From contig NZ_JH921518.1 in assembly GCF_000299035.1 (NCBI RefSeq), positions 1,187,840 to 1,251,839 of the forward strand: 64,000 nucleotides of DNA. The letters run 5' to 3'. This DNA comes from Bacillus bingmayongensis. Lineage in GTDB: Bacteria; Bacillota; Bacilli; Bacillales; Bacillaceae_G. Of the stretch, positions 13,542 through 62,907 are shown piece after piece. Both the position numbers and the translations under genes were made by a program. How positions within the stretch are numbered: the stretch's first letter is position 1; every line of letters starts with the position of its first letter. The notes below the pieces were generated by a model. The model was not told where the DNA came from. It was given only the letters and a program-made list of their open reading frames with translations, and searched no databases.

Positions 13542-15437
13542 ATGGATCAAAACCCATCTTTGCAAGAAAATATACGAAATAATAAGAAAACAGGAAAACG
13601 AAAAACAAAAATTATTATAAGTTTCCTTTTATTATTTTTAATAATAGGAGGCGGTTATACTTGGTTTCTAGTAAATAAAGCATCCTCTGCTGTTCGAAAT
13701 GCCGCTCATGATTTAGCACGCGGTGATAAATCAGATTTACGTGATAAAGCTGTTAAACCTATTTCTAATAATGTATCTGTATTGATAATGGGCGTTGACG
13801 AAAGTGATGTACGTGGTAAAGAATACGGTGGTGCCATAAGAACAGATGCACTGTTACTTGCAACGTTTAATAAAGATAGTAAAACTGTAAAACTTTTAAG
13901 CATTCCGCGAGACACATATACTTATATCCCAATAGAAAAGAAAATGGATAAAATTACACATGCACATGCATATGGTTCTGCTAAAAATGGAAAAGATGGT
14001 GGACCGCAAGCTAGTATTGATGCGGTAGAAAAATTACTTCATGTTCCTGTTGATTACTTTGTAAAATTCAACTTTAAATCATTTATGAAAATTGTGGATG
14101 ATTTAGGTGGTATTGAAGTAGATGTTCCTGTTGAATTTACTGAACAAGATAGCAACGATAATGCAGAAGCAATCCACTTGGAAAAAGGTGTTCAAAAATT
14201 AAACGGTGAAGAAGCGCTTGCTCTTGCTAGAACACGCCACATTGATAGTGATGCAATGCGCGGTCAACGTCAACAACTTGTTATCGAAGCCATTTTGAAA
14301 AAAGTAACAAGCGTTGACTCTGTAACAAAAATAGGAAATATTATCGATGATATTAATGGACAATTTGTTACGAATCTAACATTTGATGATATGTTATCAT
14401 TCTATAAATATGGTGCAGATTCTTCAATTGAAAAATTACAAATCAATGGTAAAGATTGTTATATGTCCGCTGGTGATAAAGAATGTGGCCGTGCGAGTGA
14501 CGGCGGTACGTATTACTATGCACCAGTAGAGGAAGATTTAGAAGATTTAACAGATCAACTTCGTACTCACCTTGGACTACCTAAATATAAAAAAGCTGAT
14601 TCTAATGATAAAGAGAGCAGCAAGAAAACAAATTCAGAGAAAACGAAAGAATCAAAATCTAATAGCAGTAACAAGGATGAATCAGATAACAAAGAAAATA
14701 ACAATAATGATGAAGATACAGAAACAACATCGAATGAAAAAATAAACGATACAAAACAAGATAACGATAATCAACAAAATTCTAACAACAACAAAAATAA
14801 CAGTAACGATGAAGATACAGAAACAACATCGAATGAAAAAATAAACAATACAAAACAAGATAACGATAATCAACAAAATTCTAACAACAACAAAAATAAC
14901 AGTAACGATGAAGATACAGAAACAACATCGAATGAAAAAATAAACAATACAAAACAAGATAACGATAATCAACAAAATTCTAACAACAACAAAAATAACA
15001 GTAACGATGAAGATACAGAAACAACATCGAATGAAAAAATAAACAATACAAAACAAGATAACGATAATCAACAAAATTCTAACAACAACAAAAATAACAG
15101 TAACGATGAAGATACAGAAACAACATCGAATGAAAAAATAAACAATACAAAACAAGATAACGATAATCAACAAAATTCTAACAACAACAAAAATAACAGT
15201 AACGATGAAGATACAGAAACAACATCGAATGAAAAAATAAACAATACAAAACAAGATAACGATAATCAACAAAATTCTAACAACAACAAAAATAACAGTA
15301 ACGATGAAGATACAGAAACAACATCGAATGAAAAAATAAACAATACAAAACAAGATAACGATAATCAACAAAATTCTAACAACAACAAAAATAACAGTAA
15401 CGATGAAGATACAGAAACAACATCGAATGAAAATTAA
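13542..15437 (+). CDS. LytR-CpsA-Psr (LCP) family cell-wall ligase with tandem-repeat tail
   Basis: 631 residues. Residues 1-22 are basic and cytoplasmic, 23-45 form a membrane anchor, and about 80-240 form the LCP catalytic domain: SVLIMGVDESD, IRTDALLLATF, LLSIPRDTYTYIP, HAHAYG and LARTRHIDSDAMRGQRQ with the lipid-phosphate binding Arg/Asp residues. LCP enzymes transfer wall polymers from undecaprenyl carriers to peptidoglycan, outside the membrane. From about residue 350 the tail is low-complexity, and residues 390-631 are seven 33-residue repeats plus a partial one, rich in Asn, Asp, Thr and Gln. Typical LCP proteins lack such a tail. RBS GAAGGAG. Terminator follows. Confidence 0.92.
   Translation: MDQNPSLQENIRNNKKTGKRKTKIIISFLLLFLIIGGGYTWFLVNKASSAVRNAAHDLARGDKSDLRDKAVKPISNNVSVLIMGVDESDVRGKEYGGAIRTDALLLATFNKDSKTVKLLSIPRDTYTYIPIEKKMDKITHAHAYGSAKNGKDGGPQASIDAVEKLLHVPVDYFVKFNFKSFMKIVDDLGGIEVDVPVEFTEQDSNDNAEAIHLEKGVQKLNGEEALALARTRHIDSDAMRGQRQQLVIEAILKKVTSVDSVTKIGNIIDDINGQFVTNLTFDDMLSFYKYGADSSIEKLQINGKDCYMSAGDKECGRASDGGTYYYAPVEEDLEDLTDQLRTHLGLPKYKKADSNDKESSKKTNSEKTKESKSNSSNKDESDNKENNNNDEDTETTSNEKINDTKQDNDNQQNSNNNKNNSNDEDTETTSNEKINNTKQDNDNQQNSNNNKNNSNDEDTETTSNEKINNTKQDNDNQQNSNNNKNNSNDEDTETTSNEKINNTKQDNDNQQNSNNNKNNSNDEDTETTSNEKINNTKQDNDNQQNSNNNKNNSNDEDTETTSNEKINNTKQDNDNQQNSNNNKNNSNDEDTETTSNEKINNTKQDNDNQQNSNNNKNNSNDEDTETTSNEN
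14709..15434 (+). repeat. tandem 99-bp coding repeat, 7 full copies plus partial
   Basis: Copies start at 14709, 14808, 14907, 15006, 15105, 15204 and 15303, with a partial eighth from 15402. Each encodes 33 residues starting DEDTETTSNEKINNTKQD. Copies 2-7 look identical at DNA level; copy 1 differs at least at one codon (Asn to Asp, 14749 region). Such identity implies recent expansion by slippage or unequal exchange. Confidence 0.97.
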
Positions 15438-24883: not shown

Positions 24884-25132
24884 ATGTTTCTCTCCCTTAT
24901 TTTTATCTATATGTATACGTCTATTATTGATATTGATATTGATTTTCAATTTCGATTATAACGCAGTTTTCTATCATTAATCAATGTTTTATGTTGTAAA
25001 ACTAACAAAAAACTTTTTTGTTACATCGCGAAAAAAAACTTGAAATGTTCACAAGTTTTTCACAACTTCTCCACAACTTACGGACATGCTATGTGTAAAG
25101 TTTTCCATTTCATTCAATTAGGAGGAATTTGT

Positions 25133-25729
25133 ATGTACAAAAAAATGGTATTAAGTATGACTATGATAGCACTGCTATGTGGAGTATCTGTCTTCCCAGC
25201 TGCAGCTGCTACACAAAAAGAAGTTGTAATGCATCATCATAAGATAATCTCGGAAGAACAAATCCAGTCATTAGAAAAACAAGGTTACAAAAAGCATGAA
25301 ATTTGGAAAGCCGCACACATTGCAAAGATTAGCAAAAAAGATATTAAAGATGTTTTATCGTACTATAAACAAAATAAATCTTGGAAAGAAACAGCGAAAC
25401 ATTTTGGCGTGGATCCAAAGAAACTGCATAAACATCATATAAGTAAAGAAATGAAACAAGCACTATTGCAAAAAGTAGCCGAAATGCAAAACTCCACTCC
25501 AGAACAAATGAAAAAAACAATGCAAGATAACCATATTCGTTTACATCACCTAGCGGTTCTAACTATCATTGCACAAAAAAGTAATACACCATTCAATGAT
25601 GTATTACAAATGAAAAAAGATGGCATGCATGTCAAACAAATTGCAGAAAAATTAAATGTGCAGAAAGAAGATATAAGAGCCGAAATGATGAAATTAATAC
25701 AGTCTGTAAAGCAAAACAAGACAAACTAA
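25133..25729 (+). CDS. secreted protein of unknown function with repeated HTH-like helices
   Basis: 198 residues from ATG 25133. A clear signal peptide (MYKKMVLSMTMIALLCGVSVFPAAAA) predicts export. The mature part is basic, His-rich (MHHHK, HKHH, RLHHLA) and mostly helical. Two segments, SWKETAKHFGVDPKKL and HVKQIAEKLNVQKEDI, look alike and like helix-turn-helix units, which is odd for a secreted protein. Not recognised. RBS AGGAGG. A strong terminator follows about 180 bases later. Confidence 0.75.
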   Translation: MYKKMVLSMTMIALLCGVSVFPAAAATQKEVVMHHHKIISEEQIQSLEKQGYKKHEIWKAAHIAKISKKDIKDVLSYYKQNKSWKETAKHFGVDPKKLHKHHISKEMKQALLQKVAEMQNSTPEQMKKTMQDNHIRLHHLAVLTIIAQKSNTPFNDVLQMKKDGMHVKQIAEKLNVQKEDIRAEMMKLIQSVKQNKTN

Positions 25730-25904
25730 ATATAACAAAAGAAAGAAGCATTTGTTGCTCTTCCTTTTGTTATGAGCAAATTAGAATATATGAGAAATTT
25801 ACTAAGATGAACACCGTTAATATGTGTATTCCCCCATCTCATACTCACTTTGATTCTTTACTCCAACGTGCAATTCAAGATGTAAAAATAATTTATTAAA
25901 TTGA

Positions 25905-25957
25905 AAAAAGGCTGTTCAAAAGACAATCAATATCTAACTTTTGAACAGCCTTTTTTA
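25905..25957. terminator. strong bidirectional terminator
   Basis: AAAAAGGCTGTTCAAAAG and CTTTTGAACAGCCTTTTT pair perfectly over 18 bp with a 15-base loop; poly-A and poly-T flanks serve both strands. Confidence 0.9.
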
Positions 25958-26031
25958 TGTTTCCTGTATAAATTTCTGCCTTCCCCAAAAACTAACGAGA
26001 GCATTCCATATAAGGGAAAGAGGTGAAAAAT

Positions 26032-27972
26032 ATGTTTGGCTTACCACGAAAAAAATCTAAAGCCAAAAACAAAAAAACGAGCTGTACCATTCCAGAATTT
26101 ATTCATACGATGAAGGAATCTACTGATTTTGCTTCTTATAACATTACAGAAAACGAAACACTATGCCTTTTTTATTATAAATCTGTCGTAGAAGCACTCA
26201 TAATTAAACAATTTATTTTAACACCTATCAAAAAGCAATTAGAACAAATACAAGATATTGCCGACTTGACTAACATCGTCTCTATTGAAGACATTGTTAT
26301 CTCACCTTCCATTGACGATATCCGTGAAAAGTTATTGGGGGGATATGTGCTCGTTAAACTACAAAATATATCACAGGCTAAACAATATGCTCTGATTCGA
26401 GCAGAAAGTACCGTCCTTGGTAAGCGTTTATATAACGATACAGAAAATGAATATAGCGTAATTGGACCCAAAATTGGTTTTGTGGAAAACATTGATACGA
26501 ATCTACATTTATTACGCCGCTCTATTGTAACAGAGCAATTAATCTTTAAAGAAATTGTTGTTGGATCTATATCAAAGACAAAAGTTGTAGTGGCCTATAT
26601 AGACGGGATCACGAATGAGCAATATATTAACACCACAACGCAGCGTCTCGCGGACATTGATTTCGACGTTCCCTTTGATGCAACAATGATCGAACAATTT
26701 ATTAGTGATAATAGTAACTCTCCTTTTCCGTTACTTTTACCAACAGAGAGGATTGATCGAGCTGTATTTGCTTTAATTAATGGTGAAGTGTTAATTTTAA
26801 CAGACAATTCTCCCTATGCATTAGCTGGACCGACAACACTATTAGATTTTTTCATTTCACCAGAGGATTACTATTTGCCATGGATGATCGGCTCAGCTTT
26901 TAGATTGATTCGCTTTTTTGGGGCTATATTTTCTCTATTTTCCTCAGCAATCTATACAGCTGTATTAACATTTCATTACCAAATGATTCCATCAGATTTA
27001 TTAGGACCTATTATTTTTTCTCGAGCCAATGTACCCTTTCCACCAATCCTAGAAGCACTTTTTTTAGAAATTACAATTGAGTTACTCCGCGAAGCCGGCG
27101 CCCGCTTACCTACAAAAGTTGGGCAAACAATCGGTATTGTTGGTGGAATTGTAATTGGACAAGCTTCTGTTGAAGCAGCTTTAACAAGTACAATCCTATT
27201 AATCGCTGTGGCTTTATCTGCACTTGCTTCTTTCACAACACCAACTGTGAAAATGTCTACTACCATTCGTTTACTCCGATTCCCACTCATCCTTTTAGCG
27301 GGTGCCTTCGGAGGACTTGGTCTGATTATAGGATTTGTTGTGATATTGGCACATTTATTACATTTGAAATCACTTGGATCGCCTTACTTACTACCCTTAG
27401 CACTTGTAGATGGTTCAGTCGAAGAGCTTCTAAATCATGTCACATCAAACGGTTCATTGTATCTAGCTGACTTACTTGAACAAAATATAATGAATGAAAA
27501 TATTCCGCGGACAGCTTTGAATATTTTTTTATACAATTATTATTCGTTTGTATGCGATCCATTTCTTCCTTACATTCAAATCGCTGATAATCATGCGGTT
27601 TCTGTAAAAGGTCTTGCCTTTTTAAAAGAGGACAAAGTGGTGATGTATACCGATAAAAAAGACTCTTTTTTAGTAAAGTTGCTCCTTAATCCGACTAAAA
27701 ACGGTCGTTATAAAGCGCCAATAAAAAAAGACAATCATAAAGGTCTTATCGTAGCACAAAATTTATCTGGAAAAAGTGTCTATCAAGTTGATCAAACAGG
27801 TGATGTTCCTAAAGTGACCATCCGGTTAAAATTAAACGGATTAATAAAAAACTCCCCTAGTTGGCTTGATTTATCAAAAAAAGAAAATATAAACTCTGTA
27901 AAAAATCAAGTAGAGCAAAGTATTAAAAATCAGTCTCAAAAATTGATTCAGCAATTTCAGCAAAAAAAATAG
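26032..27972 (+). CDS. GerA-type germinant receptor A subunit fused to the second half of a GerC-type subunit
   Basis: 646 residues. Residues 1-450 are a GerA/SpoVAF-type protein: soluble N-terminal domain (ENETLCLFYYKSVVEALIIKQF, LRRSIVTEQLIFKEI), then membrane segments with ARLPTKVGQTIGIVGGIVIGQASVEAAL. GerA similarity stops after HLKSLGSPYLLP. From about residue 460 the sequence is Ger(x)C-like: YLADLLEQN, DPFLPYIQIADNHAVSVKGLAFLKEDK and a closing PSWLDLSKKENINSVKNQVEQ. Usual A subunits are about 480-500 residues, so the A tail and the C N-terminus with its lipobox appear deleted in frame (junction near 27390-27420). The C tail continues out of frame after the stop. RBS AGAGGTG. Function doubtful. 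Confidence 0.75.
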   Translation: MFGLPRKKSKAKNKKTSCTIPEFIHTMKESTDFASYNITENETLCLFYYKSVVEALIIKQFILTPIKKQLEQIQDIADLTNIVSIEDIVISPSIDDIREKLLGGYVLVKLQNISQAKQYALIRAESTVLGKRLYNDTENEYSVIGPKIGFVENIDTNLHLLRRSIVTEQLIFKEIVVGSISKTKVVVAYIDGITNEQYINTTTQRLADIDFDVPFDATMIEQFISDNSNSPFPLLLPTERIDRAVFALINGEVLILTDNSPYALAGPTTLLDFFISPEDYYLPWMIGSAFRLIRFFGAIFSLFSSAIYTAVLTFHYQMIPSDLLGPIIFSRANVPFPPILEALFLEITIELLREAGARLPTKVGQTIGIVGGIVIGQASVEAALTSTILLIAVALSALASFTTPTVKMSTTIRLLRFPLILLAGAFGGLGLIIGFVVILAHLLHLKSLGSPYLLPLALVDGSVEELLNHVTSNGSLYLADLLEQNIMNENIPRTALNIFLYNYYSFVCDPFLPYIQIADNHAVSVKGLAFLKEDKVVMYTDKKDSFLVKLLLNPTKNGRYKAPIKKDNHKGLIVAQNLSGKSVYQVDQTGDVPKVTIRLKLNGLIKNSPSWLDLSKKENINSVKNQVEQSIKNQSQKLIQQFQQKK

Positions 27973-28109
27973 ACCCTTTAGGAATACGTGACCAAATTAG
28001 AAGTCGATCAAGAAAATGGAGCATACAGCAAATTCAAGCAATGTATCCATCTATAAATATTAATATTAACGCTGATGTTAACGTTGTACAATCTGGTATC
28101 GGAGAATAG
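27962..28109 (+). pseudogene. out-of-frame C-terminal end of GerC-type subunit
   Basis: After the A8 tract at 27962-27969, the main frame stops at once (TAG, 27970-27972). One extra A would continue it as KKIDPLGIRDQIRSRSRKW and on to NADVNVVQSGIGE, ending at a TAG at 28107-28109. This is the typical end of Ger(x)C lipoproteins. The segment has no start of its own and an in-frame stop just upstream of the overlap, so it is either a frameshift relic or reached by slippage. The gerB-type gene starts 12 bases later. Confidence 0.75.
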
Positions 28110-28121
28110 TGAGGTGATAAG

Positions 28122-29222
28122 ATGGGTACAACCAGTAAAGAACTAACCGTTTCCCCTTACTTGGTATTTTTTTTGATTCACTCTCTTCAAGTTGGAATCG
28201 GAATTTTAGGTTATCAACGCATTATTATAAAAAGTGCCGGTTATGACGCTTGGATTTCCCTTATTCTTGCGGGAATTGCAACTCACTTTGTATTGTTTTG
28301 TATGTTAAAAATGTTAGAAAAAGATAACGATCTGATCAATATTCATACAACATGCTTTGGAAAATGGATTGGTTCCTTATTTTCTTTACTTGTTACGATT
28401 TATTTTTTATTATTTTGTCTCACTGTCCTTCGTACATATATCGAAGTAGTTCAAGTTTGGGTATTCCCGACCATTAAATTATGGAAACTCACTTTAATCT
28501 TTTTATTAGTCACTTACTATATTATAAAAGGTGGGTTCCGTTCTGTAACAGGAATTTGTTTTTGGGGAATTGTACTACCTATTTTCGTATTGTTCTTTTT
28601 AATTTTCCCAATGAAATACGCACATTTTCGCAATATTTTACCAATTTTCACTCATTCACCTTTAGATATTGCAAAATCAGCGAAAGACTCCGCTTTAGAA
28701 TTTTTAGGATTTGAAGCGCTCCTTTTCTTTTATCCACTTATTGAAAAAGGAAAATCTTTAAAAAGATGGGCACATGGCGGTGCTGCTTTTACAATCATTC
28801 TTTATGTAATTTTAGCGCTTATCTCTTTTATATACTATAGTGAAGGACTACTCAAGCATACAATTTGGCCTACGTTAACGATGTTAAAAATTATTAAAAT
28901 CCCTTTTATTCAGCGGTTTGAATATATTATTATTTTTGTATGGTTTCTTATCATTTTACCAAATCTTTGTTTAACAATATGGTACTCTTGTCAGTCTATG
29001 AAGCGTTCATTTCATATCCCATTTAATATCACACTACCCTTTTTTATTTTTATTGTATACATCGCTTCCTTATTTTTTACAAACCGAGAAAGTATCAACG
29101 CATTAAATACACTTTTATCCCAAACGGGTATGTACATTGTATATATCTATATCCCTCTCCTTTTTCTATGGCACTCCATTCGATGGCGCTTGAAAAATAA
29201 ACGCAATCAAACTTCACCGTAG
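28122..29222 (+). CDS. GerB-type spore germination protein (GRASP/APC-fold permease)
   Basis: 366 residues with about 10 membrane segments, opening ELTVSPYLVFFLIHSLQVGIGILGYQRIIIKSAGYDAWIS, and FLGFEALLFFYPLIEKGKS in the middle, both characteristic of germinant receptor B subunits of the APC superfamily. In a working receptor it binds nutrient germinant and sits with A and C subunits in the inner spore membrane. It looks intact. Gene order A-C-B matches several B. cereus receptor operons. RBS GAGGTGAT. If A and C are defective, it may be an orphan. Confidence 0.9.
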   Translation: MGTTSKELTVSPYLVFFLIHSLQVGIGILGYQRIIIKSAGYDAWISLILAGIATHFVLFCMLKMLEKDNDLINIHTTCFGKWIGSLFSLLVTIYFLLFCLTVLRTYIEVVQVWVFPTIKLWKLTLIFLLVTYYIIKGGFRSVTGICFWGIVLPIFVLFFLIFPMKYAHFRNILPIFTHSPLDIAKSAKDSALEFLGFEALLFFYPLIEKGKSLKRWAHGGAAFTIILYVILALISFIYYSEGLLKHTIWPTLTMLKIIKIPFIQRFEYIIIFVWFLIILPNLCLTIWYSCQSMKRSFHIPFNITLPFFIFIVYIASLFFTNRESINALNTLLSQTGMYIVYIYIPLLFLWHSIRWRLKNKRNQTSP

Positions 29223-29280
29223 GAAAGCAGTAGAGAGTTTGATACAATTTTACTAACACGAAAACAAAGGGGAAATGCAG

Positions 29281-29787
29281 ATGAAAAAATATCTATTCTC
29301 TCTACTTGTAATAAGCAGTCTTACGCTTTCTGGATGCAGCGTTGCAGATGAAAAACCATCTTCTGAACCTAAAGAAAAACACGAAGAACACACTTCTCAT
29401 ACTCAGCAAGGTGATATACAAGAAACAACAAAGGGCGTCGACACGCTTCCAACCTTTTTAGATAAGCTAGATCCGCAGCTAAAAGATATCTATGCAGTTG
29501 CAGGAAAAAATGCCGAATTATTAAACTGGATACCTTGTTACTGTGGGTGCGGAGAAAGTGTTGGACATAAAAACAATAAGAACTGTTTTATCCAAGAAAT
29601 TAAGCCAAGTGGAGAAGTAGTCTGGGATTCCCACGCAACAACATGTGTAAACTGCTTAGAAATTGCTGTCGAATCTGCATCTATGCAGCAAAAAGGCAAA
29701 TCCACCCTTGAAATTCGAAACTACATTGATAATAAATATAAAGAAGGCTATGCGAAACCAACGCCTACACCAATGCCAAAAGCGTAA
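29281..29787 (+). CDS. PCYCGC-motif lipoprotein
   Basis: 168 residues from ATG 29281; a lipoprotein signal (LLVISSLTLSGCS) is followed by an acidic, His-rich linker and a domain with IPCYCGCGESVGHKNNKNCF and HATTCVNCLEIA. The cysteine pattern suggests metal or heme binding; the family occurs in Bacillus and has no assigned function. It is located outside the membrane as a lipoprotein. RBS AAAGGGGA fits the second ATG better than the one at 29275. A terminator hairpin overlaps its end. Confidence 0.82.
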   Translation: MKKYLFSLLVISSLTLSGCSVADEKPSSEPKEKHEEHTSHTQQGDIQETTKGVDTLPTFLDKLDPQLKDIYAVAGKNAELLNWIPCYCGCGESVGHKNNKNCFIQEIKPSGEVVWDSHATTCVNCLEIAVESASMQQKGKSTLEIRNYIDNKYKEGYAKPTPTPMPKA

Positions 29788-29812
29788 AAACGAGGAATTT
29801 CCTCGTTTTTTT
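29786..29812. terminator. terminator of PCYCGC lipoprotein gene
   Basis: AAAAACGAGG-aattt-CCTCGTTTTT followed by TT. Confidence 0.88.
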
Positions 29813-29909
29813 ATTTTTCACTCAACATTTTCCTTAACAAATTCTTTCAAGTGTATTTCTTCTCTCTTGTCGTAAACTATTTGTAACTCCTCAGTAAGGA
29901 GGGTACACA

Positions 29910-30158
29910 ATGCACACATATAACGACTACGATAAGGCTCTCTATTACACATATTGTTGTAATTGGGACAAGTTGCTTGTATTAATGGTACAAACTGATG
30001 ATCAATTATTTTCTAAACGAATTGAACATTTTTTACATGCTTATAAATATAGTAAAGAACTGCCAGAAGTAGATAAACAACTTCAGCTTCTATTTCAATA
30101 CATTGACCATGCTTCACAAAAATCACATTTAGAAGAAATAGATCAAGTACAAATGTAA
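29910..30158 (+). CDS. small protein of unknown function
   Basis: 82 residues, beginning MHTYNDYDKALYYTYCCNWDKLLVLMVQ; acidic C-terminus, no membrane segment. It has a good AAGGAGG site (29896-29902) and its own terminator, so it is likely real. Not recognised. Confidence 0.65.
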   Translation: MHTYNDYDKALYYTYCCNWDKLLVLMVQTDDQLFSKRIEHFLHAYKYSKELPEVDKQLQLLFQYIDHASQKSHLEEIDQVQM

Positions 30159-30161
30159 ATG

Positions 30162-30196
30162 AAGCGCTATTCTTCCTTTGAGAATAGCGCTTTTTT
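30162..30196 (+). terminator. terminator of small unknown gene
   Basis: AAGCGCTATTCT and AGAATAGCGCTT form a 12-bp stem followed by TTTTT. Confidence 0.9.
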
Positions 30197-30256
30197 GAAT
30201 ATTTTTCCACAAAACTGTTCATAATACACATATCAATAGTGGATGGACGTGATCAT

Positions 30257-31138
30257 TTGCATAAATCCTTATCTGTATTTCTCTGCATGATTATATTGCT
30301 TATCGGTTGTGAAAAAGCGAATAATCCTCATTCGTTTCAAGGGGGAAAACAGGAAAAAGACATATGGAATATCTTAATTATCGGCAGCGATTCACGAGGC
30401 GAACGACAAGCTCGTGCTGATACAATTATGATTGCCCAGTACAATAAAAAAGAAAATACAGCAAAGCTTGCTTCGATTATGCGAGATAGTTATGTAGAAA
30501 TCCCTTCTTATGATAAAAAATATAATAAAATTAATGCTGCCTATTACTACGGCGGTCCTGAATTATTACGAAAGACGATTCAACATAATTTCGGAATCGA
30601 TGTTTCTCATTACGTTACGATTGATTTTGAAGCATTTGTTAAAATTGTGGATACAATCGCACCTGAAGGTATTGAAGTCAATCTTACACAAACAATAATC
30701 GATGATATGGGACTACATTTACAGCCGGGGATACAAGCTCTTCATGGGAAAGATTTATTAAAATATGCCCGTTTTCGTCATGATACTGAAAGTGATTTTG
30801 GTCGTGTGAAACGGCAACAAGAAGTACTCCGGGCATTGAAACAAACCCTTACTGATAAAGTTCACTCTATAGATGGAGTACTAAATTTACCAATAATGGC
30901 ACACGAACTCTCTCCATATATAAAAACAAATTTAGATATAGGGGCGCTATTTACACTTGGAAATAGCATTTTATTTCAACCCATTGATAAGATGGAAACA
31001 ATGCGAATTCCAATTGATAAAGAATATGAACCAGCTCTTACCGAACACGCTGGCTCCGTCTTAAAAATAAATCAAGAAATAAATAAAGAAGCTATTCAAA
31101 ACTTTTTCAATGCTACAAAAGCTGTAAATCGTCCCTAA
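30257..31138 (+). CDS. LCP family protein, lipoprotein-like N-terminus
   Basis: About 293 residues from a TTG at 30257 (GGACGTGAT lies 7 bases before it); an in-frame GTG at 30239 lacks a ribosome site. The N-terminus has a hydrophobic segment ending in ILLIGCEK, a likely lipobox, unusual because most LCP enzymes use a membrane helix. The LCP core is intact: NILIIGSDSRGERQARADTIMIAQY, ASIMRDSYVEIP, YARFRHDTESDFGRVKRQQE. Probable wall-polymer transferase. It is the second LCP gene of this window and lacks the repeat tail of the first. Terminator follows. Confidence 0.85.
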   Translation: MHKSLSVFLCMIILLIGCEKANNPHSFQGGKQEKDIWNILIIGSDSRGERQARADTIMIAQYNKKENTAKLASIMRDSYVEIPSYDKKYNKINAAYYYGGPELLRKTIQHNFGIDVSHYVTIDFEAFVKIVDTIAPEGIEVNLTQTIIDDMGLHLQPGIQALHGKDLLKYARFRHDTESDFGRVKRQQEVLRALKQTLTDKVHSIDGVLNLPIMAHELSPYIKTNLDIGALFTLGNSILFQPIDKMETMRIPIDKEYEPALTEHAGSVLKINQEINKEAIQNFFNATKAVNRP

Positions 31139-43669: not shown

Positions 43670-45763
43670 TTAAATAAACAATCCCACAATCATATCAATT
43701 ACCTTAATTCCGATGAAAGGAACAATAACTCCTCCAAGTCCATAAATCAATAAGTTACGACCAAGTAATGCATTGGAACTCATCGGTTTATACGCAATCC
43801 CCTTCATTGCTAATGGAATGAGTAATGGGATAATAACTGCATTAAATATCAATGCTGATAAAATGGCTGACAGCGGTGAAGTTAACTTCATCACATTCAG
43901 TGCTTCCATTTGTGGAATTGCTAATGTAAACATCGCTGGAATAATCGCAAAGTATTTCGCTATATCATTTGCAATACTAAATGTTGTTAGCGCACCACGT
44001 GTCATTAATAGCTGCTTCCCAATACCTACAACCTCAATAATTTTTGTTGGGTTGGAATCTAGGTCAATCATATTGGCCGCCTCTTTTGCAGCTGTTGTTC
44101 CACTATTCATCGCTAATCCAACATCAGCTTGTGCTAATGCTGGTGCATCGTTTGTACCATCACCTGTCATCGCAACAAGTTTTCCTTTATCTTGTTCTGC
44201 TTTAATAACTGCAATTTTATCTTCTGGCTTACATTCCGCAACAAACTCATCTACCCCTGCTTCTTTCGCAATTGTTGCCGCTGTTAATGGGTTATCCCCT
44301 GTACACATCACCGTTTTAATTCCCATTTGGCGAAGCTGTTCAAAACGTTCGCGCATACCAGGTTTTACAGTATCCTTTAAATAGATTAAGCCATAAATGC
44401 GATCATCGACTGCCACTACAAGTGGTGTCCCACCTTCTTTGGAAATTAAATCCGCCTTTTGATTCACATCTTTTGGAATCGTACCACCTTGTGCTTGTAC
44501 CCACTCAATAACCGCACCAACTGCACCTTTTCTTACTTTTGTACCATCAAGTAGATCTACACCACTCATTCTTGTTTCTGCTTTAAACGGAACAAACTCA
44601 CCTTGCTCAGCAAGCTCACTGTTATATGATAGAGATTTTGATTTTACATATTCAATTACAGAGCGACCTTCTGGTGTTTCATCTAAAACCGATCCTAATG
44701 CAGCCCATTTTGCTAATTGCTCAATTGTTTCGTTTCCTACAGGAAGCAATGTATGTGCCATCCGATTCCCAAAAGTAATAGTACCTGTTTTATCTAAAAT
44801 AATTGTATTAATATCACCAGCAGCTTCTACAGCTTTACCTGACATCGCTAATACATTAAATTTCGTTACCCGATCCATTCCAGCAATCCCAATGGCTGAT
44901 AATAAACCACCAATTGTCGTTGGAATTAAACAAACAAGAAGTGCCACAAGTACAGCTGTATCAATCTTGAAACCTAAATAGTTTGTAAAGATAGGTAGTG
45001 TCACAACAACAATTAAGAAAATAAGAGTTAAACTTGTCAATACTGTGTTTAAAGCTATCTCATTCGGTGTTTTTTGACGAGCAGCTCCTTCTACTAAAGA
45101 GATCATTTTATCTATAAATGACTCACCTGGATTGCTTGTAATCGAAATTGTAATCTCATCACTGACAACCATTGTACCGCCTGTTACCGAGCAAAAGTCA
45201 CCACCAGCTTCCTTAATAACCGGTGCAGATTCTCCAGTAATAGCTGATTCATCAACAGATGCTAACCCTTTAATAACCTCTCCATCACTCGGAATCATTT
45301 CTCCTTGTTTCACGATTACAACGTCACCTTTTCTCAGTTCAGTTGCTGAAACTTGAACAATTTCACCATCTTCTTTTACGACATTCGCAAATACATCTTT
45401 CTTCGATTGTTTTAAAGAATCTGCTTGTGCTTTTCCTCGCCCTTCTGCTAATGCTTCTGCAAAGTTAGCAAACAAGACAGTAAATAATAGAATAAGAGAA
45501 ACTGTTATATTAAACCAACCTGGTATACTACTAGATTCATTCGGAAGAAAGGATAAAATCAAAGTGATTATAAATCCAATTTCCACAACGAACATAATAG
45601 GGTTTTTTACCATTACTTTCGGATTCAATTTCGCAACAGATTGCTTCATTGCATGGGTCACGATATCACGATCCATCGTTTTCGCTTGTCTAACCTCATC
45701 TTCTACAACATGTACCCGTGATTGATTCACTTGTTTTTCTTTTACCACTACAGGTCTCATCAT
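43670..45763 (-). CDS. kdpB: potassium-transporting P-type ATPase subunit B
   Basis: 697 residues. P-type ATPase motifs: [10 protein letters not shown] (actuator), [16 protein letters not shown] with the phosphorylated Asp near residue 322, KGAVGAV nucleotide domain, [10 protein letters not shown] and [26 protein letters not shown]. It powers K+ uptake through KdpA. Two ATGs in a row give the start; GGAGGG precedes them. Ten bases separate it from kdpA. Confidence 0.97.
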
Positions 45764-47721: not shown

Positions 47722-47756
47722 AAAAATGAACAACACAAAAGTAAACCTCCTCTCCA

Positions 47757-47885
47757 AACGCTTACGAGGTTAGCTGTCGGATTCGGGCCTAAAGAGTAGC
47801 CCTACTTTCGTAATGAAAGATTCACCCCAAGTGACAATGCACAAAATTGGTTCCCCCGCTCCAAATACTTGGACTCAGCGATATC
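47757..47885 (-). ncRNA. c-di-AMP riboswitch (ydaO/yuaA type) of the kdp operon
   Basis: The minus strand carries the class hallmarks in order: CGCTGAGTCCAAG, GGAGCGGGGGAACCA, TTGGGGTGAATC, GTAGGGCTACTC, CCGAATCCGACAGCTAACC and CGTAAGCG closing P1. ydaO-type RNAs bind c-di-AMP and usually turn expression off. Ahead of a high-affinity K+ importer this fits the known role of c-di-AMP as a signal of potassium excess. A terminator lies 36 bases downstream. Confidence 0.93.
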
Positions 47886-48090
47886 AGGTTGTTTTTGGAA
47901 ATATTATGAACAATTTATGAATGTAAATATACTCCTCTATATTTGAGTTGTAAAGAGGTATATTACTTAAAATAAGAAAGTTTTCACCTGTTTAACCGCT
48001 TACATTGATTGATATTAATATTTTACCGTCTGTTTTCTCGTTTTTTCTTTGCTTTTCATTAAAATTAACTTTTAATTTGAAATGATAATA

Positions 48091-48838: not shown

Positions 48839-48944
48839 GCACATCTTCCTCCTTAGCATAAAAGAATTCAAATATAGCTTGATATTCTCCTATACTAATC
48901 AGACCGATGAAGCGATGTATCCATCAATGCACCATCCTCTCCCA

Positions 48945-49074
48945 AGACGCTTACGAAGTTAGCTGTCGGATTCGGACTTTGAGAGTAGCCCTACTTTCAT
49001 CATGAAAGATTCACCCCTAGTGACCATGCACAATTTGGTTCCTCCGCTCCAAATTAATTGGACTCAGCGTTACA
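48945..49074 (-). ncRNA. second c-di-AMP riboswitch (ydaO/yuaA type)
   Basis: Same class as at 47757: on the minus strand GCTGAGTCCAATTAATTTGG, GGAGCGGAGGAACCA, TAGGGGTGAATC, GTAGGGCTACTC, TCCGAATCCGACAGCTAAC, CGTAAGCGTC. It lies 107 bases upstream of the unknown operon at 48838. No clear terminator follows, so control may be translational or by another structure. Confidence 0.92.
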
Positions 49075-49174
49075 AAAAAACAGATTCTGGCTGATATAAT
49101 ACTCCTAAATATGGAAAAAGTAAACAATAAAAAAGCCAATTATAAAACTGGCTTCTTCATCAAATCCTGAATAT

Positions 49175-57216: not shown

Positions 57217-57246
57217 CAGCAAATAAAAACACATTTATTCGTTGTT

Positions 57247-57332
57247 CCACTTCCCTTCGCTAGTATTACCTAGATCAGGTCCGTAAGGGTTAAGGATTAT
57301 TCCTCTCTCAGCATGCAAAGCACCCCTAGTGG
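57247..57332 (-). ncRNA. TPP riboswitch (THI element), tenA-proximal
   Basis: Minus strand: ACTAGGGGTGC, GCATGCTGAGAGAGG, ACCCTTACGGACCTGATCTAGG and TACTAGCGAAGGGAAGT, the complete THI-box core. It should bind TPP and stop transcription at the terminator at 57182-57216. Confidence 0.95.
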
Positions 57333-57353
57333 TTGTTACTATGAATTTGTCCA

Positions 57354-57391: not shown

Positions 57392-57410
57392 CTGACTGTT
57401 CATGTCCGAA

Positions 57411-57505
57411 TTGCTTCCCTACGCTAGCATAATCTAGATCAGGTAATAAAAAGGATCAAAGACTCTCGGTCTTACTCTCAGCTGGCAACACCAGCTCTCC
57501 TAGCA
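57411..57505 (-). ncRNA. TPP riboswitch (THI element), distal copy
   Basis: Minus strand: CTAGGAGAGCTGGTG, CCAGCTGAGAGTAAG, then a variable arm, TACCTGATCTAGATTATGC and TAGCGTAGGGAAGC. Core elements are kept, though the CTAGGAG arm departs from AGGGGTGC. Forms a tandem riboswitch pair with the one at 57247, as reported upstream of tenA in B. anthracis. Confidence 0.9.
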
Positions 57506-57941
57506 CAATATGAAATTACCATAGTCAGTATAACACTGTCGTGGGTCATCAGCAACTGTTTTAACTTATTGTAATCCCATTTATCCTAATTGATAAGGAT
57601 TAATAACCAGTTGGCTTACAGATTATAAAACGAGAATTATTTACATCTAAGTTCCACTATATAAAATATGAAAAATAAACATTCATATAGGCATGGCTAC
57701 TTGTTCTCCTACTAATAAGTACAAAAGCAACTTTTCACTGTCTATTCAGAAAATATCGATTATCCTTTATTCATATTATAATGATTATTTATCTGTTATT
57801 CTTGTCATATATTTCGATTCCATTAAAAAATTGTTATTTTTTCTCATTTCATATTACAGTTATGTGAACAATGCACAAAGTATTATATCTTTATACTATA
57901 ATAAAAAATATATTAATACATCTATGGGGGGCTAATATTAG
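57506..57941. other. gene-less region ahead of the M23 peptidase gene
   Basis: About 436 AT-rich bases carrying the promoter of the thi operon on the minus strand and that of the peptidase on the plus strand. TACTATAATA at 57894-57903 could be a -10 region. The open frame across it shows no family features and is rejected. Confidence 0.4.
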
Positions 57942-59461: not shown

Positions 59462-60613
59462 TTATCCGCACGCATATCGTTCATAAATAAAACTTAAATT
59501 ATACTTCTTTTCTAAGCCCATTCGTTGTTCATCATCACACCAGTAAAATAAAATATCATGAATCGTTGCATAGCGCTTATTCTTTAGAAATTGCTTAATA
59601 AATGACGGTAAACAATCATGTAATTGTATAAATATATAATTCCGCAAGATTTCTTCTTTATGTTCAATTCCTTTACAAACATACATCAACTCTTCACAAT
59701 AATATGCATGTTGCGGAACTTGAATCATTTCAAAAAATGGTACATATGATAATAGTTTTCCAATGAAGTGCTCGTATCGATTCATAAACTCAAACGACAT
59801 GTGCTCCATCATTTCCTTCATTACATAAAGATAATCATCCACATGCGTAGTTTTTAACGGATTAAGGCGGTCAGAAATTTGAGCAATTACAGCCCTTTGA
59901 CATGCAACAACAGAACGACTCGGTCCATAATATGTTAAAAAATCTGTACACTTACGATATTTTTTTAATAAGTCATATATGTATATGTCATAAACGTATG
60001 TATTACAGTATATTGCTAAATGCATCATCTCTTGATCCAATTCTTCTTTGGACAATAATTTTGCCTGTTTGCAAATATAAAAGAATGTAAGTTCCATTAC
60101 TTCCTTATGAGATAATAGGTTTTCACATTTTTCAATACATTTTTCATTAAATTTAATTCTTTCCCATATGATTATATCTTTATTTTCTAATTCACCGACT
60201 CGATATTTTACGATTAAGTAGTTCCAAGCCACAACTTGAGTTAAAATATCCCATGTTTCATATTCCATAGATGTATGCACAAATTCATCTAACCTTTGAT
60301 TCACCATAAATGTATAAGCTTCTTTATACCAACCAATTTCCTGGCATAAACGAACAATACGAACTAAAGTTGGTATTTCATCTTTATGAAACTGTGGCAA
60401 GCTCTGTACTTTATTCATTGCATATAAGATAAACGGAGCCAAGTTTTCTTGTTTATAAAATTCTTTTTCTTTCCAAGCTAAAATTGTCCGTTCTTTTCCT
60501 TCGCCTTTTGGACGATTTGGTACAAGTAAAGAAAATAAATCCGCAAAATTATTTGGTTCCACATAGACATCTGTAACCAAATTCCAATTGGGGTTACTCT
60601 GTACATCCCTCAT
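59462..60613 (-). CDS. helical-repeat protein of unknown function
   Basis: 383 residues, MRDVQSNPNWNLVTDVYVE onward, mostly helical with many aromatic residues and Cys but no clear motif or membrane segment. The spacing of helices (e.g. RIVRLCQEIGWYKEAYTFM and FIKQFLKNKRYATIHDILFYW) is reminiscent of TPR-like regulators, but this is only pattern. Not recognised. RBS GGAGGGGA. Monocistronic. Codon use looks normal for the region. Confidence 0.7.
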   Translation of the reverse strand: MRDVQSNPNWNLVTDVYVEPNNFADLFSLLVPNRPKGEGKERTILAWKEKEFYKQENLAPFILYAMNKVQSLPQFHKDEIPTLVRIVRLCQEIGWYKEAYTFMVNQRLDEFVHTSMEYETWDILTQVVAWNYLIVKYRVGELENKDIIIWERIKFNEKCIEKCENLLSHKEVMELTFFYICKQAKLLSKEELDQEMMHLAIYCNTYVYDIYIYDLLKKYRKCTDFLTYYGPSRSVVACQRAVIAQISDRLNPLKTTHVDDYLYVMKEMMEHMSFEFMNRYEHFIGKLLSYVPFFEMIQVPQHAYYCEELMYVCKGIEHKEEILRNYIFIQLHDCLPSFIKQFLKNKRYATIHDILFYWCDDEQRMGLEKKYNLSFIYERYACG

Positions 60614-62221: not shown

Positions 62222-62244
62222 ACGATATAATATTATTTTAAAAA

Positions 62245-62337
62245 TGGAGGAGGTAGAGGGATTCGAACCCCCGCGCGACTCTCGCCGCCTGTCGGTTTTC
62301 AAGACCGATCCCTTCAGCCGGACTTGGGTATACCTCC
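62245..62337 (-). tRNA. tRNA-Ser (TGA), copy 1
   Basis: 93 nt including CCA; anticodon loop CTTGAAA; long variable arm; acceptor GGAGGTA/TACCTCC. Discriminator is T, unusual for serine tRNAs (normally G). Differs from the other three copies by one base in the D-loop (62320: C in the tRNA versus T). Confidence 0.95.
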
Positions 62338-62430
62338 ATGAAGTAAATATTAATTATATCTTTTAGTTATCTTTATACATCTAATAGTTTTTATTAACTA
62401 TCCTATCATTCCATTTTAATTATTATAAAA

Positions 62431-62523
62431 TGGAGGAGGTAGAGGGATTCGAACCCCCGCGCGACTCTCGCCGCCTGTCGGTTTTCAAGACCGATCCCTT
62501 CAGCCAGACTTGGGTATACCTCC
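62431..62523 (-). tRNA. tRNA-Ser (TGA), copy 2
   Basis: Same gene as copy 1 except the D-loop base at 62506. Unit of 186 bp with its 93-bp spacer. Confidence 0.95.
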
Positions 62524-62616
62524 ATGAAGTAAATATTAATTATATCTTTTAGTTATCTTTATACATCTAATAGTTTTTATTAACTATCCTATCATTCCAT
62601 TTTAATTATTATAAAA

Positions 62617-62709
62617 TGGAGGAGGTAGAGGGATTCGAACCCCCGCGCGACTCTCGCCGCCTGTCGGTTTTCAAGACCGATCCCTTCAGCCAGACTTGGG
62701 TATACCTCC
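62617..62709 (-). tRNA. tRNA-Ser (TGA), copy 3
   Basis: Identical to copy 2, exactly 186 bases away. Confidence 0.95.
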
Positions 62710-62802
62710 ATGAAGTAAATATTAATTATATCTTTTAGTTATCTTTATACATCTAATAGTTTTTATTAACTATCCTATCATTCCATTTTAATTATTATAA
62801 AA

Positions 62803-62895
62803 TGGAGGAGGTAGAGGGATTCGAACCCCCGCGCGACTCTCGCCGCCTGTCGGTTTTCAAGACCGATCCCTTCAGCCAGACTTGGGTATACCTCC
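62803..62895 (-). tRNA. tRNA-Ser (TGA), copy 4
   Basis: Identical to copies 2 and 3; the first of the four to be transcribed. Confidence 0.95.
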
Positions 62896-62907
62896 ATAAA
62901 ACTAAAG

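What the first reader, a model, noticed from the sequence alone, without database searches (positions are those of the whole stretch)
26032..27972. Germinant receptor A subunit fused in frame to the second half of a C subunit
Up to about residue 450 the protein is a GerA-type subunit. It then lacks the usual cytoplasmic tail and continues as the C-terminal half of a Ger(x)C lipoprotein (DPFLPYI, GLAFLKEDK, LDLSKKENINSV). A deletion of the 3' end of gerA and the 5' half of gerC, including its lipobox, in an A-C-B operon would give exactly this. Either the receptor is a pseudogene or a chimeric A-C chain is displayed in the inner spore membrane, which would be a new receptor architecture.
Basis: partly seen in the sequence, partly recalled or inferred. 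Interest (0 to 1): 0.75.

Follow-up and report, generated by a model that had tools for sequence, protein, structure and literature searches.

The report
Broken, fused spore germinant-receptor gene
A gene for a spore's nutrient sensor has apparently lost about half a kilobase, which fused two of its three subunits into one reading frame, and it is broken a second time near its end, so it is most likely a dead receptor gene and not a new kind of sensor.

Summary
The 646-aa frame 26032-27972 is a GerA-type A subunit up to about residue 455, then the second half of a Ger(x)C lipoprotein. That stretch holds the A tail and the start of C with its lipobox.

The C half stops at 27972, right after eight A. 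Its conserved last 46 residues lie in another frame at 27969-28106; in 21 of 21 distinct loci with a C match they end one continuous C frame. gerB (28122-29222) looks intact.

Two lesions in one gene, no lipobox, and a C part that would lie on the wrong side of the membrane make a pseudogenised A-C-B operon much the likeliest (0.85). Conserved residues are otherwise mostly kept, so decay is probably recent.

Nothing close to the window was found, so sister loci, the species and a sequencing error in the A run could not be checked. No listed row elsewhere shows an A-C fusion (lists cut).

The parts
26032..27399 (+). A-subunit part of the fused frame (GerA, PF03323), without the usual A tail
   Evidence: PF03323 residues 26-459, profile 6-443 of 466; tblastn of relatives' A ends at 27399; tail motif of relatives absent
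27391..27399 (+). A/C junction, point of the inferred deletion
   Evidence: A matches end at 27399, C matches of L001 and L029 begin at 27391; 518-546 extra bases here in 14 of 14 relatives measured
27391..27972 (+). C-subunit part: second half of a Ger(x)C protein, no signal peptide or lipobox, stopped early
   Evidence: PF25198 111-176/176 and PF05504 2-120/167; TIGR02887 128-322/371
27962..27972 (+). Run of eight A followed directly by the stop codon; place of the change of frame
   Evidence: Sequence; tblastn frame switch
27969..28109 (+). Severed C-terminal 46 residues of gerC plus stop, in another frame
   Evidence: Translation; matches at the end of C in 14 distinct loci and 7 more
28122..29222 (+). 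gerB, spore permease subunit, 366 aa, looks intact
   Evidence: PF03845 profile 1-319 of 321, E 2.3e-84; keeps 29 of 30 invariant columns

Best explanation
This is a pseudogenised A-C-B germinant-receptor operon. Shown by comparison with relatives: about half a kilobase is missing, comprising the A tail, the A/C boundary and the first third of gerC with its signal peptide and lipobox, and the remaining C half is in frame with A. Also shown: a separate change of frame at or near a run of eight A cuts off the last 46 residues of C. Inferred: the missing stretch was lost by a deletion in this lineage, in frame by chance; without a lipoprotein C subunit and the A tail the operon makes no working receptor. 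If the chimera is made, its C part would follow the last membrane segment of A and lie on the core side, whereas C subunits are modelled on the outer face of the inner spore membrane. The spore would then rely on other receptors (not examined here, as the genome is not held). Conserved residues are mostly kept elsewhere, so the lesions are probably recent.
For: Domain order and truncated profiles. Separate A and C with 518-546 more bases in 14 of 14 relatives measured, and separate frames in 7 of 7 more. Frame change and severed tail, with the tail ending one continuous C frame in 14 of 14 distinct loci with a C match and 7 of 7 more. Cysteine lipobox-like N termini seen in the relatives' C subunits, absent here. 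Topology: passages of PMC13170314 and PMC8617281; no hydrophobic segment after residue 451.
Against: The frame is open for 646 codons across the junction, and conserved residues are largely kept: 133 of 143 in A, 8 of 8 in C, 6 of 7 in the severed tail, 29 of 30 in B, so there is no broad decay. Relatives are at most about 62% identical in A, and several (L011-L017) are near each other, so they are not independent. The A run could hold a sequencing error. Expression and selection were not tested.
Confidence: 0.85

Rival explanations
1. A functional chimeric receptor: the fused A-C chain assembles with GerB in the spore membrane and senses or modulates germination without a lipid-anchored C subunit.
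For: The fusion is in frame; B looks complete; conserved residues of A and of the retained C part are mostly kept.
Against: C lacks its first third, its lipobox and its last 46 residues; its place after the last A membrane segment puts it on the core side. No listed row in 397 genomes covers both halves of a query across the junction (list cut). A one-in-three chance would put a random deletion in frame.
Confidence: 0.05
2. Artefact: the deletion, the frame change or both are errors of sequencing or assembly over an intact operon.
For: Homopolymer runs are error-prone (established knowledge); only one sequence of this locus is available here, and no genome or reads are held.
Against: An in-frame loss of half a kilobase with ordinary flanking genes is not a usual assembly error (inference); not tested against reads.
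Confidence: 0.05
3. Partly working operon: the A part and GerB still form a receptor that borrows a C subunit from another operon.
For: A and B are otherwise well kept.
Against: The A tail, present in the 15 relatives' A subunits aligned, is lost, and the attached C fragment sits in its place. Other receptors of this genome could not be examined.
Confidence: 0.05

Closest known systems
Ger-type germinant receptor operons in A-C-B order, for example L001 (Gottfriedia solisilvae) and L002-L006 (Paenibacillus)
   Same: Homologous A, C and B genes in the same order; A 50-61% identical, B about 37-44%
   Different: There A and C are separate full-length frames with a lipobox on C; here they are fused, both truncated, and the C tail is out of frame
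Degraded germinant-receptor genes reported elsewhere: gerLA of a B. cereus strain (PMC8624511, passage) and CBO1973A of Clostridium botulinum (PMC4161481, passage)
   Same: Receptor genes described as pseudogenes
   Different: The passages seen do not describe an in-frame A-C fusion
gerA operon of Bacillus anthracis
   Same: Recalled, from no call: reported as probably non-functional. Its existence is named in a passage of PMC3765415
   Different: Not tested: the species of the window is not established, and the two key papers are not held

Membership tests
GerA A subunit (PF03323) | Score over Pfam's gathering cut-off | tested here: met
   457 bits against 27
GerA A subunit (PF03323) | Cytoplasmic C-terminal tail as in relatives | tested here: not met
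   Tail of the 15 aligned relatives is absent; C sequence follows
Ger(x)C C subunit | TIGR02887 curated cut-off for the whole protein | tested here: not met
   134.2 bits against 163.25; model positions 128-322 of 371 only
Ger(x)C C subunit | Signal peptide and lipobox cysteine | tested here: not met
   The N-terminal third is missing
Ger(x)C C subunit | Complete C-terminal domain PF05504 | tested here: not met
   Profile 2-120 of 167; last 46 residues in another frame
Tricistronic germinant-receptor operon | Three separate intact subunit genes | tested here: not met
   A and C fused and truncated, B intact
Pseudogene | Gene-disrupting lesions relative to homologues | tested here: met
   Missing stretch and change of frame
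Pseudogene | Loss of selection, or no product | not testable with these tools
   No close relative of the window found; no expression data

The most novel reading that the evidence does not exclude
The chimeric A-C chain is made, assembles with the intact GerB and forms a two-gene receptor or modulator whose C domain sits on the core side of the membrane without a lipid anchor; expression across the A run might even yield a minor share of chains that carry the C tail.
Probability: 0.05. Interest if true: 0.65.

Novelty: new member of a known kind. Interest (0 to 1): 0.25.

Why it matters
It records one way in which a spore former loses a nutrient receptor, and it warns annotators that a long open frame with good matches to two families can be a deletion scar and not a new architecture. 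If the chimera did work, it would show that a C subunit can act without a lipid anchor and on the other side of the membrane, against current models of the receptor.

Tried and rejected
Own genome: none is held, so other receptors and a gerC elsewhere in the genome could not be sought. Relatives' A, C and B queries gave no other credible match in the window (the two stray hits have E 0.67 and 0.71).

Close relatives: the genome-contig scan by six short peptide patterns gave 7 loci, best 61%; viral contigs gave none; plasmids gave no near match for 25000-31000, and by protein 95 records, each best place under 60%. The 19 genomes of the family of G001 gave A at 62% or less (348 matches, list cut) and SpoVR at 85% or less. 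In 397 genomes of the order, drawn from a larger group and with at most two candidates scored in each, 343 matched; the best-scoring row was 70% over 866 bases, and the highest identity listed 80% over 158 bases (list cut). So no sister-locus comparison and no dN/dS.

Fused relatives: a 187-aa query across the junction matched 382 of 397 genomes (at most 8 candidates scored in each, list cut). Listed A rows end by query 84. The six listed C rows begin at query 43-70, that is 8-35 residues before the junction (about 78-80); all six were fetched (L062-L067) and have separate A and C frames. In 19 genomes, 262 C matches, the listed frames are 279-465 aa (list cut). The three longest listed A frames (616, 605, 603 aa): L060 and L061 end in ordinary A tails; L019 matches from its residue 121, with 55 residues left after the match, which were not read.

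Structure: AlphaFold on an alignment of 13 gave mean pLDDT 53.2 and pTM 0.29, too poor to use; no fold search was made. PDB by sequence: two GerA-type N-terminal domains for the A part; nothing for the C part; for the L001 C subunit two weak lysozyme matches (E 0.14 and 0.95), taken as chance. Promoter scan: 8 sites against 15.5 in shuffles; two terminator-like sites against 2.2.

Papers: nine searches; the listings show no paper on an A-C fusion. Only listings and passages were seen, no paper in full. Passages: PMC11860322, PMC2712684, PMC13170314, PMC3765415, PMC8624511, PMC4161481, PMC3485630, PMC8617281. Fisher and Hanna 2005 and Carr 2010 are not held.

Rows dropped: of 38 A hits only 15, in 14 distinct loci (L001 and L010 are one), had a C match at E 1e-3. 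L018 has A, but its contig ends where C would lie; it was used in the A alignment only. L065 and L066 gave no B match within the stretch fetched. L011-L017 were cut too short to show B. L040-L059 were not used.

Full report
Observation. The frame 26032-27972 is 646 residues from ATG. Pfam finds GerA at 26-459, Spore_GerAC_N at 455-517 (only profile 111-176 of 176) and Spore_GerAC at 527-645 (profile 2-120 of 167); searching the two halves apart gives the same families. NCBIfam's Ger(x)C model matches residues 456-646 at positions 128-322 of 371, with 134.2 bits against a curated cut-off of 163.25.

Relatives. BLAST of the A part against the open frames of the first 39 loci gave 38 hits, the best 61% identical; the C part gave 15 hits in 14 distinct loci. 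In those 14, A is 490-516 aa and C 354-389 aa, as separate frames with a gap of up to 17 bases or an overlap of up to 26. Measured between residues that flank the junction, they hold 518-546 bases more than the window. The A subunits aligned share a tail, and the C subunits have hydrophobic N termini with a lipobox-like cysteine; both are missing here. Seven further loci, picked from the listed rows, show A of 503-517 aa and C of 361-404 aa as separate frames. B follows C in L001-L006 and in five of those seven; in L065 and L066 no B match was found in the stretch held.

Second lesion. The C half stops at 27970-27972, directly after eight A. The stretch 27969-28106, read alone in another frame, gives 46 residues. 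They match the C-terminal end of relatives' C in 14 of 14 distinct loci (24-48% identity, E from 2.5e-13 to 0.001) and 7 of 7 further loci (30-43%). In all 21 the tail lies within four residues of the end of one continuous C frame. tblastn with whole C subunits shows the change of frame at this place. The gene is thus broken at two separate points.

State of the rest. GerB at 28122-29222 is complete by Pfam (profile 1-319 of 321). Of columns invariant among the relatives, the window keeps 133 of 143 in A, 8 of 8 in C, 6 of 7 in the severed tail and 29 of 30 in B. Each relative held out in turn keeps between 143 of 154 and 143 of 143 in A, so the window is at the low end but not outside. There is no broad decay and the lesions are probably recent; this does not by itself show or exclude selection.

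Mechanism. In current models the C subunits form a ring on the outer surface of the inner spore membrane, while the A N-terminal domain and small tail are on the inner surface (PMC13170314, passage). Another paper gives evidence that the GerAA N-terminal domain is in the core and calls GerAC a lipoprotein (PMC8617281, passages; it also notes that earlier topology studies disagreed). By hydropathy the last hydrophobic stretch of the fusion ends at residue 451 and none follows, so the C part would lie on the core side without a lipid anchor. It lacks the first third and the last 46 residues of a C subunit. A working receptor is therefore unlikely. This step is inference; the AlphaFold model was too poor to help.

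How rare. In 397 genomes of the order, a 187-aa query across the junction matched in 382; no listed row covers both halves, and the six listed C rows that begin a little before the junction come from loci with separate A and C. In 19 genomes of the family of G001, the listed C frames are 279-465 aa. Both lists were cut, so rarer cases further down were not seen.

Limits. A match with the gerA operon of B. anthracis is recalled only. A sequencing error in the A run cannot be excluded; even then the missing half kilobase would still take away the A tail and the C lipobox.

Verdict. A real in-frame A-C fusion, by an inferred deletion in an A-C-B operon, most likely a pseudogene with a second lesion (0.85). 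A functional chimera is not excluded but unlikely (0.05). Receptor pseudogenes are known in other spore formers (passages), so the kind is not new; the in-frame fusion is an uncommon form of it among the rows seen here.

Noticed in passing
window 62232-62897: Four copies of tRNA-Ser(TGA) in tandem, period 186 bases, 99% matches, inside a 22-gene tRNA cluster next to a 5S rRNA.
   Followed up: no
window 14688-15433: A 99-base unit repeated 7.5 times at 99% matches, at the C-terminal end of a LytR_cpsA_psr-family gene (13542-15437).
   Followed up: partly
window 57235-57337 and 57399-57511 (- strand): Two TPP riboswitch aptamers one behind the other.
   Followed up: no
window 47745-47890 and 48932-49079 (- strand): Two c-di-AMP riboswitch aptamers about 1.2 kb apart; a P-type ATPase gene (43670-45763) lies downstream on the same strand.
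   Followed up: no
related genomes, for example G007, G008, G011: Several extra partial SpoVR-like copies per genome, some with stops inside, beside a full-length gene.
   Followed up: no
window 59462-60613 (- strand): A gene made of two domains of unknown function, DUF3960 and DUF3965.
   Followed up: no
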